Assembly: GCA_937919825.1 (NCBI GenBank)
Contig: CALFPA010000105.1
Location: 1 to 33,909 of the forward strand
Length of the DNA: 33,909 nucleotides
Source: an uncultured Spartobacteria bacterium
GTDB taxonomy: Bacteria; Verrucomicrobiota; Verrucomicrobiia; Chthoniobacterales; Terrimicrobiaceae
Reading direction: 5' to 3'
This document shows positions 30,199-33,909 of the stretch, one piece after another. Position numbers and translations under genes: made by a program. Each line of letters opens with the position of its first letter. The first letter of the stretch is position 1. The notes beneath the pieces are model-generated. The model was given only the letters and a program-made list of their open reading frames with translations, was not told the origin of the DNA and did no database searches.

Positions 30199-30807
30199 TC
30201 AAAAAGCCAACACGCCCCACTCGTCGGGGCGATGAAATTTGGGAATCGGGTGGGGGGATGTTGTGGAAAGGACTGGCATTCGCCCGTCTTGAAACGCGTC
30301 ATACCGGCAGAAGGAAAACCGCCACCGTTCTCCATTCTCAATGGATGAACGATTCGTGATGACTCCGCAGGGGATCAAAGCCAAAACGATCCATCGACCG
30401 GATTCGATCCAAACGCGGCTTTCAAAAATCCCATCGGGGAGGATTTCGGATGGGGCGCCCACGGCGGAAAAGCCAAATTGTGTGCGGGTGTTCGTAGGTG
30501 TGACATGAAGCTCGCGATAATGGCTTTCACTTTCTGGCTTCAAAAAAATCTCAAACACATCGCCGAGTTCCCAAGTTCTCTGGTTGGGTTCGGTGACGCG
30601 GGTGAAAATGTCCAAATCTGGAATCGTCGCGAGAACGAGGAGTTGGTCTGCGACGCGTCCCACACGAACCTCCGCGCCGAGAAAATCCGGCTCCGGTTGG
30701 GGCAGCCAGGACTGGCCAAAGGCGATGGCAGGAGCTTTTACAAACGCCTTCAGGACCGATTCCAAATTCGAGCTGTCGAATTCGGGAAGAGTTTTGCAAG
30801 CGGTCAT
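30199..30807 (-). CDS. CBM9-like (carbohydrate-binding) domain protein
   Basis: This 202-residue protein without a signal peptide consists of one beta-sandwich like the CBM9/DOMON-type domains. Visible parts are the N-terminal FLGAEVRVGRVADQLLVLAT, the conserved WELGDVFEIFLKP followed by YRELHVTPTN, and WRFSFCRYDAF near the end. Similar domains bind sugar chain ends in xylanases, and here it stands alone. The ATG at 30807 follows a GTG at 30810. The start overlaps the stop of a degraded reading frame upstream (TGATG), which suggests it was once translated after an intact gene. It is convergent with murA. Confidence 0.75.
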   Translation of the reverse strand: MTACKTLPEFDSSNLESVLKAFVKAPAIAFGQSWLPQPEPDFLGAEVRVGRVADQLLVLATIPDLDIFTRVTEPNQRTWELGDVFEIFLKPESESHYRELHVTPTNTRTQFGFSAVGAPSEILPDGIFESRVWIESGRWIVLALIPCGVITNRSSIENGERWRFSFCRYDAFQDGRMPVLSTTSPHPIPKFHRPDEWGVLAF

Positions 30808-30914
30808 CACGGCTGGCTTTGCAGGATGATTGTTTCGTCGCGATACATGTCGTTGTTGGATCCCTGGAACTCGGCCTTCAGCCCGGGCAACCTTTGAAAA
30901 ACTAAATCAAGTAT
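30807..30914 (-). pseudogene. 3'-terminal remnant of a second copy of the secreted unknown gene
   Basis: In the frame ending at the TGA 30807-30809 the last 35 codons include LKAEFQGSNNDMYRDETI, closely matching LKAEFQASNKDMYRHETV at the end of the gene at 31272-32003. At the DNA level both share TTCGT.GCGATACATGTC. Similarity fades upstream of about 30914. No start or N-terminal part of the gene is found, so this is a fragment. Confidence 0.75.
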
Positions 30915-31271
30915 GGGGTTTGTTTGAATTCCAAAGACAATTACCGAAAGCAGGACTCGCTTGTCCTTCTTATTGGATTCGGTGGTTCGCACTGGAAGTC
31001 CGGTTGTGCCAACCGGACAATCCGATGGTGCCATTGGTTCATTATGTTACGGGCTCGGGCATCGTTGTTGCGGCGGCATCGCCTTACGAAAACATGCTGG
31101 AGGGATGACCTCCGTGTCATCCCATTTTTGCGACGAAGCCGCCATTGTATCGCAGACGGCGCTGCGCGCCTGAAGCTTGGGCGCCGACGGAGCATCGCCC
31201 TCCAATTGTTGGTGCCGAATGAGCGATGGACGCGGCTGGCTTTGCGGCGTGGGTCATTCGGGTCGGTCGCT
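30915..31271. repeat. non-coding decayed region with an inverted hairpin and R1 repeats
   Basis: I see no credible gene here. Bases 30998-31018 form a perfect 8-bp hairpin (GTCCGGTT-GTGCC-AACCGGAC). Bases 31098-31124 (TGGAGGGATGACCTCCGTGT..) are a left R1 half, and 31157-31205 (CGGCGCTGCGCGCCTGAAGC, TTGGGCGCC.., CCCTCCAA) an R1 copy in the opposite orientation. Together these give an imperfect inverted-repeat element of about 108 bp. It separates the broken secreted-protein gene from its duplicated 3' end. Confidence 0.7.
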
Positions 31272-31502
31272 TTACTCGGCGCTCGGGGATTTTTCCGCGC
31301 TCTTCAGAACAACCGTTTCGTGGCGATACATGTCTTTGTTAGAGGCCTGAAACTCCGCCTTCAGGCGCACTTTGATTTTCGAAACATCCACGATTTCCCA
31401 GCCCTCGAAGCGAAGTTGTCCGCCCTGGCCTTCGTTGTGTTGAACGCCGATGAGTAAATGCCTGGCATCGTCATGCACCTTGCCCGTGGTTGTTTTTGGC
31501 TC
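31272..31502 (-). pseudogene. 3' part of the secreted unknown gene, cut off by an in-frame TAA
   Basis: Directly after the TAA at 31503-31505 the same frame continues EPKTTTGKVHDDARHLLIGV.., GWEIVDVSKIKVRLKAEFQ.. and stops with TAA at 31272. The continued frame without any indel, and the match of its end to the remnant at 30807-30914, indicate that it is the natural C-terminal part of the gene at 31503-32003. A single base change in a Tyr-type codon would create the stop. Expression would need readthrough. Confidence 0.75.
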
Positions 31503-32003
31503 TTAGTAGAAAGTGCGAAGGCTGCTCTCCCGGGAATCGGCGGCGTGCAATTTGGGATCCAGATAAACCACTGAGCCGTCTTCCAGCACGAGTCGGATGT
31601 CCGGATAACCGCTGCGCTGCTCCTCGCCCGCAGAGGTTTTCGGGATGCCACAGGTCCATCCACCCACGCCTGCGCATTGTGCCAAAAGCTCGTCTTCGAT
31701 GAACCGGCTGGCCTCGTTGATGCGCCCTGCCGAATGGATCGGGTGGGACGGCTCGTTCAGCTTGGCGAGGGTTTGGTTGAGGATGACAGCGAATTTTTCG
31801 AGCCACGGTTTATCGGTGGCAGGATCGACAGGGATGATTTTTTTGCCGGTGGTGGCGGAGAGGACTTCGCTGAAAGCGATGCCCCGCAGGTCTCGGTCTT
31901 TCTGAAGAAGCCAGCCGATAAACTCGGTGGCGTCGGATTTTTTCTCGTCCGCAAAAAGCGGTGAGGCGGCGATCAGAGCCAGCGTGATTGCCGCCCGGAG
32001 CAT
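31503..32003 (-). CDS. secreted protein of unknown function, nonsense-truncated, PD-(D/E)xK-like pattern
   Basis: This is a 166-residue frame with a signal peptide (MLRAAITLALIAASPLFA). The mature part has SDATEFIGWLLQKDRDLRGI, then Cys-containing CAGVGGWTCG, then GYPDIRLVLEDGSVVYLDPKL. The order PD..(about 14)..DxK resembles the active site of PD-(D/E)xK nuclease folds, but this is an inference from spacing alone. The frame ends at a TAA after SLRTFY, with the missing C-terminal 77 residues continuing in the same frame. The ATG at 32003 shares a base with the oprB stop (TGATG), so it is in an operon with the porin gene. Confidence 0.7.
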   Translation of the reverse strand: MLRAAITLALIAASPLFADEKKSDATEFIGWLLQKDRDLRGIAFSEVLSATTGKKIIPVDPATDKPWLEKFAVILNQTLAKLNEPSHPIHSAGRINEASRFIEDELLAQCAGVGGWTCGIPKTSAGEEQRSGYPDIRLVLEDGSVVYLDPKLHAADSRESSLRTFY

Positions 32004-33460
32004 CAGAAGCTCACGCTCATCTGTGCGCCGAGCACGAGAGCGTTCGGGATGTTGCCGGTGCCTCCAGGGTTGATGATCCATTGGAGGTTCGGCTGCACAT
32101 AGGCGAATTTCGTGATCTGAACGCGGTAGCCGGCTTCAAGAGCGAGTTCGTAACTGGGCGATCCTGCGCCTGTGGCGGATACGGTGTCGGCGTAATCTTC
32201 GCTGAAATTGCCATATGCCATGCCGAGCATGGTGATGTCACTGTCGCGAGTGGGAACAAGGCCGCGATAGACGATGCCGGCGTTCGCCTGGAACGGAAGC
32301 TTCGAGATGTTTTGTTGGGGCGAGAGGACGAATGCGCTCCAGAGAGTGAGGCCTTGGTTACTGCCGGGCGATTCCTGCCAGATCATTTGGTCGGCGTGCC
32401 AGTAGAAGCCATAGGAGTTGTTCGCGGTCTCGGCGGAGCCGAACTGCGCGTAGTCCCAAGGCGAGAAATACATGCCGAACCAGTAGTGGCCGGGCAGTCC
32501 GCGCATCTCGGCGGCCACGGGTTCCTTGAAGGTCTTCCCCTCGGAGCGGGCCTTGCGAGAGACTGCCGACTTGCCATCCGATTTCGCCTGGCTGGCGGCG
32601 ACTGGTTTTTTGAAAAACTCGGGAGTCCACCCGACCTGACCCACCATGGTGACGCCATCGGAGTTGTTCATGCTCCAATTCAAGCCGTGGCCTTCGTAGA
32701 GGTTGATCTGGGTGGCTTGGTAGATTCCCGCCATGGCGAACCATTCGGGCGAGGGGTCAACGCGGAGGCGGGCACCCCAGACGGCGTTCGGATAAGTCGA
32801 GAAGGCCGAGTTGACGGGGAGCGACTGAGGGTTTCCATCGATGCCGTTGTTCATGTAGAGCCAGTAGAGCGGCGAGGAGGCGAAGTCATCGCCCGCCGAG
32901 AAGCGTCCGATCTTGATGCCGAGTTTTTCCTCGAGGAGTTTTTGCTCCAGCACGAGCGCGTAGAAGGCGATGGTCTGGCCGCCATAAACCTGCTGGACAG
33001 TGAATTGATTACCGATGTCTTGGGCGGAAAGGTTCGAGCCGTTGCGGTCGAGGGCGCTGATCGTCAGCGTGGCACCGTGCCAGCCGACGAGTTTTTCGAA
33101 ATCAAGTTGCACGCCGAAGCTGGTGTTGTCGGCATAGGCGAAGGCTTGGCTCCGGCCACCGACGGGATTACCCGCGATGTTGTTTGTGTAGGAGGCGGAA
33201 ATTTCGATGCCGGAATCGTCGAGGAAATTCCTGACGCCCCACCAGTCACCGCTCAGGGAGTTGCCCTCCCACCACTGGCGCGAACCGATGTAGTTCGAGG
33301 GGTAGGGATCGTAATAGGTCCAGAATCGCGAGTAGCCGAACATCTCGTCCTGATTTTCAATGTAGCCAAGCGGCGTGCCAGGGATGTCGCCCGATTCTTG
33401 GGCGAAAACAACGATCGATGTGGAAACGAGGACAGCGAGCGAGAGGGGGATATTTTTCAT
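32003..33460 (-). CDS. OprB-family carbohydrate-selective porin
   Basis: This 485-residue outer-membrane beta-barrel protein has a signal peptide (MKNIPLSLAVLVSTSIVVFA), the early GDWWGVRNFLDDSGIEISAS (OprB start of barrel), many alternating aromatic strands and a C-terminal Phe (QMSVSF) for BAM-dependent insertion. OprB porins admit glucose and other sugars. ATG 33460 is chosen because the signal peptide begins there, although the frame is open to 33514. GGAGGT lies about 15 nt upstream, further than usual. It heads the unit with the secreted unknown protein and CBM9-like gene. Confidence 0.9.
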   Translation of the reverse strand: MKNIPLSLAVLVSTSIVVFAQESGDIPGTPLGYIENQDEMFGYSRFWTYYDPYPSNYIGSRQWWEGNSLSGDWWGVRNFLDDSGIEISASYTNNIAGNPVGGRSQAFAYADNTSFGVQLDFEKLVGWHGATLTISALDRNGSNLSAQDIGNQFTVQQVYGGQTIAFYALVLEQKLLEEKLGIKIGRFSAGDDFASSPLYWLYMNNGIDGNPQSLPVNSAFSTYPNAVWGARLRVDPSPEWFAMAGIYQATQINLYEGHGLNWSMNNSDGVTMVGQVGWTPEFFKKPVAASQAKSDGKSAVSRKARSEGKTFKEPVAAEMRGLPGHYWFGMYFSPWDYAQFGSAETANNSYGFYWHADQMIWQESPGSNQGLTLWSAFVLSPQQNISKLPFQANAGIVYRGLVPTRDSDITMLGMAYGNFSEDYADTVSATGAGSPSYELALEAGYRVQITKFAYVQPNLQWIINPGGTGNIPNALVLGAQMSVSF

Positions 33461-33909
33461 GAGGGTAAAAAATACCTCCCAGAAATCCCAAGTCCTGCCA
33501 ATGCGATTTTGCATCGAGTTCCAAAAAGGAAAAAAAGGGTTAGCCGGAGTCGCTGTGCTGGCTGGAGGGGGGCAAGGGGCTCACACGAAGCCGCGAAGCG
33601 CACGGAGAAAAAATCCCGCAGTGGCGCTGGGCCGCAGAGGAGAATCGGGAAATTTTGCCTGCGAATGTGGCAAATCCACGCGAATACAGGGTAGGGTCGC
33701 CTCGCCGAGCCGACCCAAGATTCAGGCGCGGATGCGCCGTTTCAAGGAGCGTGGGGCATCTCGCCCACATTGCTCCATCCATTTTGGGGCGGGGGACGCC
33801 CATTCTCCTTGAGGCGCCCGGCGGCGCGGACGCCCTGGCAGTAAATTTCTCTCCGTGATCTCTTTGTGCTTTGACTCGGTCGGGCCCACTCCCTCGCCCT
33901 TCGGGCCAA
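33461..33909. repeat. oprB upstream region with composite R2-R1 repeat
   Basis: Bases 33461-33581 are the oprB leader with no convincing promoter. Bases 33582-33672 are R2 copy c (inverted: CACACGAAGCCGCGAAGCGC, CCCGCAGTGGCGCTGGG, GAAATTTTGCCTGCGAATG). Bases 33691-33740 are R1 copy d (GTAGGGTCGCCTCGCCGAGC, CGACCCAAGATTCAGGCGCG, GATGCGCCGT). From 33742 to 33812 a segment is bounded by the inverted pair TCAAGGAG/CTCCTTGA. CTCTCCGTGATCTCTTTGTG (33850-33869) is like repeat tails common in this kind of genome. No gene is seen. Confidence 0.7.

What the first reader, a model, noticed from the sequence alone, without database searches (positions are those of the whole stretch)
30807..31390. Duplicated 3' end flanking a repeat-filled insertion
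The last ~35 codons of the secreted-protein gene occur twice, at about 31275-31380 and 30807-30914, separated by roughly 360 bp containing R1 repeats and a perfect hairpin. The distal copy ends in TGATG overlapping the CBM9-like gene. This suggests the ancestral gene was directly coupled to the CBM9-like gene and was then split by duplication/insertion, or that a tandem paralogue decayed.
Basis: partly seen in the sequence, partly recalled or inferred. Interest (0 to 1): 0.5.

Follow-up and report, generated by a model that had tools for sequence, protein, structure and literature searches.

The report
Mosaic scar inside a porin operon
In a freshwater Verrucomicrobia genome, the tail of one gene appears twice because debris from other elements (a broken antitoxin gene and an interspersed repeat) now separates two versions of that gene's end, most likely a leftover of recombination with a related species; this is an ordinary kind of genome scar, although the gene itself looks like an exported DNA-cutting enzyme.

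Summary
The duplication is real but shorter than described. 24 codons (72 nt, 30810-30881) repeat the conserved C-terminus of the upstream gene (copy at about 31293-31364); no homology extends further upstream. Congeners show the ancestral order oprB - secreted gene - CBM9-like gene, with the secreted gene ending at or within a few nt of the CBM9-like start, so "directly coupled, then split" is supported. No tandem full-length copies were seen in 84 gene-bearing genomes of 213 searched, or in 80 named loci. The intervening ~410 bp is a decayed Phd/YefM antitoxin fragment (source of the 21-nt hairpin) plus one interspersed MITE/REPIN-like repeat. The copies differ by dS about 1.4 with dN/dS about 0.1: as far apart as different species' genes, and diverged as coding sequence. 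So this is not a recent duplication that decayed, but most likely a scar joining two orthologue-level alleles (one-sided illegitimate recombination); paralogue loss and assembly chimerism remain possible. The upstream gene also carries an in-frame stop. Side result: the "secreted protein" is an exported PD-(D/E)xK endonuclease homologue (SwaI/EcoRV fold), seen here only in Verrucomicrobiota-type records. The scar itself is ordinary.

The parts
32006..33514 (-). oprB-like carbohydrate-selective porin gene (first gene of the operon)
   Evidence: Pfam OprB E 5.1e-67; 90% aa identical orthologue beside the same neighbours in G003
31275..32003 (-). Secreted-protein gene, upstream (complete) copy, with an in-frame TAA at codon 167; exported PD-(D/E)xK endonuclease homologue of SwaI/EcoRV fold
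   Evidence: frames; stop; family, model, fold, PADLOC REase_II; N-terminus, catalytic columns; TGATG overlap with oprB
31293..31364 (-). Proximal copy of the duplicated C-terminal block (inside the complete gene)
31233..31260 (-). 28-nt partial repeat of the tail end (75% to 30810-30837, includes an exact 13-mer found only twice in the genome assembly)
31073..31208 (.). Interspersed MITE/REPIN-like element R1, core 31098-31204 with terminal inverted repeats TGGAGGG...CCCTCCA and inner palindrome 31102-31123
   Evidence: terminator-like on the + strand
30892..31060 (+). Decayed fragment of a Phd/YefM-type antitoxin gene (5' part; cognate PIN toxin gene absent)
   Evidence: 70-74% to G011 and G004 loci; those ORFs are PhdYeFM_antitox; G004 neighbour is PIN; score 92 vs shuffle maximum 28
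30998..31018 (.). Perfect 9-bp hairpin inside the antitoxin fragment, at a small deletion relative to the G011 and G004 homologues
30810..30881 (-). Distal copy of the duplicated C-terminal block (24 codons), in frame to TGA
30807..31034 (-). 75-codon chimeric open frame (antisense of the antitoxin fragment plus the distal tail), ending in TGATG on the next gene; no evidence that it is translated
30202..30807 (-). CBM9-like gene, intact, ancestrally coupled to the secreted-protein gene
   Evidence: CBM9_2 E 0.017, below Pfam cut-off; dN/dS 0.12 vs G003

Best explanation
The locus is a recombination scar in an oprB - secreted nuclease-like gene - CBM9-like operon. Ancestrally the secreted gene ended at or next to the CBM9-like start codon. 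In this lineage a segment carrying a complete copy of the secreted gene (with the oprB side) was joined, through other DNA (an interspersed R1 repeat and the 5' end of a Phd-type antitoxin gene), to a second, orthologue-level allele of which only the last 24 codons plus the CBM9-like gene remain. The simplest single event is one-sided (homology-facilitated illegitimate) recombination with DNA of a related species: homologous exchange on the oprB/secreted-gene side and an illegitimate joint inside the resident gene's tail (30882-30891). Shown: the conserved order, the two diverged tails, the identity of the inserted pieces and the sharp edge of the tail. Inferred: the one-sided event, its direction, and that the pieces arrived together. 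The complete copy has since acquired an in-frame stop, so it is probably inactive here, while the CBM9-like gene remains intact.
For: Ancestral coupling: G003, G004, G012, G002, G006 and G007 carry oprB - gene - CBM9-like in order, with the stop touching or near the next start; five named loci show the same order. The distal tail keeps the ancestral relation to the CBM9-like gene (TGATG). The tails are 23% apart at DNA level, differences by codon position 5/1/10, dS 1.36 and dN/dS 0.10, close to window/G003 for the whole gene (dS 1.24, dN/dS 0.12): both lived as coding sequence until recently. Homology stops at 30881 and antitoxin homology begins at 30892. No tandem full copies. Precedent for this mechanism leaving 3' ends of displaced genes downstream: PMC5361080 (passages read); the process is defined in PMC3240628 (abstract read).
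Against: No donor was found: no congener has this gene followed by the R1-antitoxin stretch. The trees do not make either block foreign: oprB, the secreted gene and the CBM9-like gene of the window all pair with G003 (support 1.00, 0.95, 0.84). 24 codons are too few to place the distal tail. The unique 13-nt repeat at 31233 (2 of 2000 shuffles reach 13 nt) is not predicted by a single one-sided event. Homology-facilitated illegitimate recombination is reported as rare (passage; abstract).
Confidence: 0.5

Rival explanations
1. Old tandem paralogue: the gene was duplicated in tandem before or around the split from G003, both copies stayed functional for a long time, and recently most of the second copy was deleted, with R1 and an antitoxin gene inserted and decayed in between.
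For: Explains the diverged but coding-type difference between the tails and the intact frame of the distal tail; the family decays often, with split or partial copies in G007, G065, G142, G143, G144, G164, G176, G183, G187 and G198.
Against: No genome among 84 gene-bearing of 213 and no locus among 80 has two full copies; needs several separate events; no trace of the rest of the second copy in the gap.
Confidence: 0.25
2. Assembly artefact: the genome is a metagenome-type assembly, and two related strains or species were joined in this contig at the spacer, giving one tail from each.
For: 143 contigs; the sister records named are MAGs; the tails are as far apart as different species' genes; no second genome shows the junction.
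Against: Gene order on both sides is colinear with G003; R1 copies in this genome match only in short or imperfect stretches (100% over 27 nt, 94% over 51 nt), a poor bridge for assembly; contamination is estimated at 1.3%.
Confidence: 0.15
3. Insertion with target-site duplication: a ~410-bp segment (tail fragment, antitoxin fragment, R1) inserted into the spacer of an otherwise intact gene pair, duplicating the 13 bp CGGCTGGCTTTGC.
For: The 13-mer flanks the segment exactly (30810-30822, 31233-31245) and occurs nowhere else in the genome assembly; the repeat is beyond most shuffles.
Against: In the distal copy the 13-mer is the natural continuation of the gene's end (G003 and G004 also read CAAAGC-nnn-CCG there), so it came with the tail; no terminal inverted repeats were reported at the segment ends.
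Confidence: 0.08

Closest known systems
Homology-facilitated illegitimate recombination scars leaving orphan 3' ends (Vibrio T6SS effector/immunity arrays, Rhs loci; PMC5361080, passages read)
   Same: A complete gene followed by the orphaned 3' end of a diverged version and the ancestral downstream gene, between conserved neighbours.
   Different: Here the joint carries a repeat element and antitoxin debris, the displaced gene is a nuclease-like gene rather than an effector, and no donor or recombination was observed.
MITE / REP-REPIN elements (GTAG/CGTC repeats, PMC3733652, passages read)
   Same: R1 is short, palindromic, with inverted ends, many copies per genome and non-coding.
   Different: No GTAG/CGTC tag or cognate transposase was tested; copies also form tandem runs of about 159 bp in G014.
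Type II restriction endonucleases of SwaI/EcoRV/HincII fold
   Same: Fold and PD...DxK motif of the upstream gene's product.
   Different: Carries an export-signal-like N-terminus, and no methyltransferase was among the ten neighbours scanned.

Membership tests
Scar of homology-facilitated illegitimate recombination | Two diverged orthologue-level versions of one gene end in series, the distal one in its ancestral context | tested here: met
Scar of homology-facilitated illegitimate recombination | Identifiable donor sequence next to the homologous anchor | tested here: not met
   No congener has the gene followed by R1 and the antitoxin fragment; therefore proposed as mechanism, not filed as a proven member
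Scar of homology-facilitated illegitimate recombination | Short microhomology at the illegitimate joint | tested here: inconclusive
   The joint lies within 30882-30891; the donor sequence is unknown, so microhomology cannot be scored
Phd/YefM antitoxin (type II toxin-antitoxin) | Match of the encoded protein to PF02604 above cut-off | tested here: met
   Met for the homologous ORFs in G011 and G004 (33.1 and 31.3 bits, cut-off 29.8); the window fragment is related at DNA level only and is no longer a gene
Type II restriction endonuclease (PD-(D/E)xK, SwaI/EcoRV class) | Restriction-endonuclease fold | tested here: met
   Model pLDDT 87; SwaI Z 11.9, 3.2 A over 158 residues; EcoRV Z about 9; PADLOC REase_II in 20 of 20 members
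Type II restriction endonuclease (PD-(D/E)xK, SwaI/EcoRV class) | Catalytic PD...(D/E)xK residues | tested here: met
   P134, D135 and D149 in 20 of 20 members, K151 in 19 of 20
Type II restriction endonuclease (PD-(D/E)xK, SwaI/EcoRV class) | Cognate DNA methyltransferase next door | tested here: inconclusive
   None among ten neighbours from eight loci; in the window the neighbours are oprB and CBM9-like; not searched genome-wide
REPIN/MITE | Multiple interspersed palindromic copies without coding capacity | tested here: met
   12 of 16 genus genomes have matches at E <= 0.001 to the insert, nearly all in the R1 part; inverted ends
CBM9 | Pfam CBM9_2 above cut-off | tested here: not met
   15.3 bits against a cut-off of 25; hence 'CBM9-like' only

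The most novel reading that the evidence does not exclude
The operon belongs to a Verrucomicrobiota device in which an exported restriction-type endonuclease works with an outer-membrane porin on incoming DNA (scavenging or restriction outside the cytoplasm), and the scar seen here is itself a product of uptake of congener DNA at this locus; the unique 13-bp direct repeats flanking the 410-bp segment could allow precise reversion.
Probability: 0.12. Interest if true: 0.55.

Novelty: new member of a known kind. Interest (0 to 1): 0.25.

Why it matters
As a scar it is ordinary: it documents that operons in this genus are reshuffled by joining diverged alleles through repeat and toxin-antitoxin debris. 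Its main value is indirect: it led to a family of exported SwaI/EcoRV-fold endonuclease homologues that no Pfam or NCBIfam model covers, and whose role (DNA scavenging or extracytoplasmic restriction) is testable.

Tried and rejected
Rejected: (1) a longer duplicated block or decayed remnant of the gene upstream of 30881: a weak by-eye protein resemblance did not beat shuffles, and the family HMM reaches only the last 23 residues. (2) Recent local duplication: disfavoured by divergence and codon-position pattern. (3) A CBM9-like start remnant after the complete copy: the score (5/300 shuffles) came from a comparison stretch that included the 13-mer, so it is not evidence. (4) A sigma-70 promoter for the CBM9-like gene in the insert: none found. 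(5) Rfam families in the insert: none. (6) Search for a described exported/periplasmic/secreted restriction endonuclease: 0 papers for the five phrases; one unrelated paper for the terms (listing only); this covers only the open-access library. (7) L166 has a second 138-nt hit 2.3 kb from its gene; not followed.

Not done: genus genomes without the gene (G001, G005, G009, G010, G013, G015) were not inspected for synteny; reads and coverage were not available.

Full report
Observation. The minus strand reads oprB (33514-32006), a secreted-protein gene (32003-31275) and a CBM9-like gene (30807-30202), with murA on the plus strand beyond (murA is named from recall of the family, supported only by the 96% identical G003 orthologue). 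The C-terminal end of the secreted-protein gene occurs twice: 30816-30881 against 31299-31364, 79% over 66 nt. In register, 53 of 69 nt and 16 of 23 residues are identical; the alignment score of 65 compares with a maximum of 26 in 300 dinucleotide shuffles. The distal block runs from 30810 to 30881 and stops there: the sequence upstream scores like shuffles (124/300, 224/300), and a family profile matches only the last 23 residues. The distal copy ends in TGATG shared with the CBM9-like start; the complete gene starts in the same manner on the oprB stop.

What lies between. R1 (31073-31208) is an interspersed element: the insert has 45 matching places in this genome at E <= 1 (query included), nearly all in R1, and matches in 12 of 16 genus genomes at E <= 0.001. 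Nine longer copies align with inverted ends TGGAGGG/CCCTCCA and inner palindromes. The stretch 30892-31060 is 70-74% identical to the 5' part of antitoxin ORFs in G011 and G004; those ORFs are Phd/YefM antitoxins by Pfam, and in G004 the next gene is a PIN-domain toxin. In the window this fragment has small deletions and no toxin gene; the 21-nt hairpin 30998-31018 lies at one such deletion. About 24 nt (31209-31232) and the joint 30882-30891 remain unassigned.

Relatives. Among the eleven regions fetched, G003, G004, G012, G002, G006 and G007 carry oprB - secreted gene - CBM9-like in order, with the secreted gene's stop at or a few nt from the next start. G008 and G014 have oprB and the CBM9-like gene without the secreted gene; G011, G018 and G025 have oprB and the secreted gene without the CBM9-like gene in the stretch fetched. 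G003, the closest, is colinear through murA (MurA 96%, OprB 90%, secreted protein 77%, CBM9-like 64% aa identity). Its alternative, tandem full copies, was found in 0 of 84 gene-bearing genomes among 213 searched and 0 of 80 named loci. Eleven genomes show two matches, but these are pieces of one broken gene or, in the window genome, the tail.

Age and nature of the copies. Differences between the two tails fall 5/1/10 on codon positions. NG86 gives dS 1.36 and dN/dS 0.10 for the tails, against dS 1.24 and dN/dS 0.12 for the whole gene between window and G003. With 23 codons these are rough, but they say that both tails diverged under coding constraint for about as long as the species split. 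A recent duplication followed by decay would instead give nearly identical copies or position-independent differences. The complete copy has an in-frame stop at codon 167, where intact relatives have a sense codon; the codons after it still show dN/dS 0.07 against G003, so the stop is recent or an assembly error. G007's orthologue is also frame-broken.

Mechanism. I consider one-sided recombination most likely (0.5). A segment with oprB and a complete gene replaced the resident one by homology, and its other end, carrying R1 and antitoxin DNA, was joined illegitimately within the resident gene's last 24 codons, leaving these with the CBM9-like gene. This mode is proposed for Vibrio T6SS loci, where 3' ends of displaced genes persist downstream (PMC5361080, passages read; definition in PMC3240628, abstract read). 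Against it: no donor found, and the trees of all three genes pair the window with G003, so neither block is visibly foreign. Old paralogue loss (0.25) and assembly chimerism (0.15) remain. A 13-nt direct repeat (30810-30822, 31233-31245), found nowhere else in the assembly and reached by 2 of 2000 shuffles, is unexplained by the favoured model.

The secreted protein. Its family has no Pfam or NCBIfam model: member 1 gives none, and no model matches more than one of the 20 members. All 20 members match PADLOC's type II restriction enzyme profile (best 2.1e-23). A model with mean pLDDT 87 matches EcoRV in Foldseek (E 8e-4) and SwaI at Z 11.9 in VIA-align, with restriction endonucleases filling the 50 rows shown. 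P134, D135 and D149 are invariant and K151 is present in 19 of 20; 17 of 20 members, as cut for the alignment, have a hydrophobic N-terminal stretch. 173 relatives were found in genome contigs; the titles of the 80 kept are Verrucomicrobiota-type records. oprB adjacency was seen in 9 of 80. Ten neighbours scanned in eight other loci included a pyrimidine nucleoside phosphorylase, a TatD-type DNase and three ribBA-type genes, and no methyltransferase. An exported nuclease for DNA scavenging is my guess; activity is untested.

Verdict. It is an ordinary mosaic scar with modest interest; the exported endonuclease-like family is the part worth pursuing.

Noticed in passing
window 31275-32003 (-): The 'secreted protein' is an exported PD-(D/E)xK endonuclease homologue of SwaI/EcoRV fold without a Pfam or NCBIfam model; relatives are Verrucomicrobiota-type records among the 80 kept.
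   Followed up: partly
window codon 167 of the gene at 31275-32003 (-): In-frame TAA in an otherwise conserved gene; downstream codons still show constraint, so a recent nonsense mutation or an assembly error.
   Followed up: partly
L128 (G014:C44), L109 (G013:C14), L130 (G007:C11): R1 elements form tandem runs with a period of roughly 156-159 bp in several congeners.
   Followed up: no
window 31102-31123 (+): The inner R1 palindrome followed by ATTTTT resembles an intrinsic terminator on the + strand, opposite to the operon.
   Followed up: no
G007, G065, G142, G143, G144, G164, G176, G183, G187, G198 (no window coordinates): The exported endonuclease-like gene is split or partial in many genomes, suggesting repeated decay.
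   Followed up: no
L155:3669-4904 and L188:5710-6498: Neighbours of the family elsewhere include a pyrimidine nucleoside phosphorylase and a TatD-type DNase, hinting at a nucleotide-salvage context.
   Followed up: no
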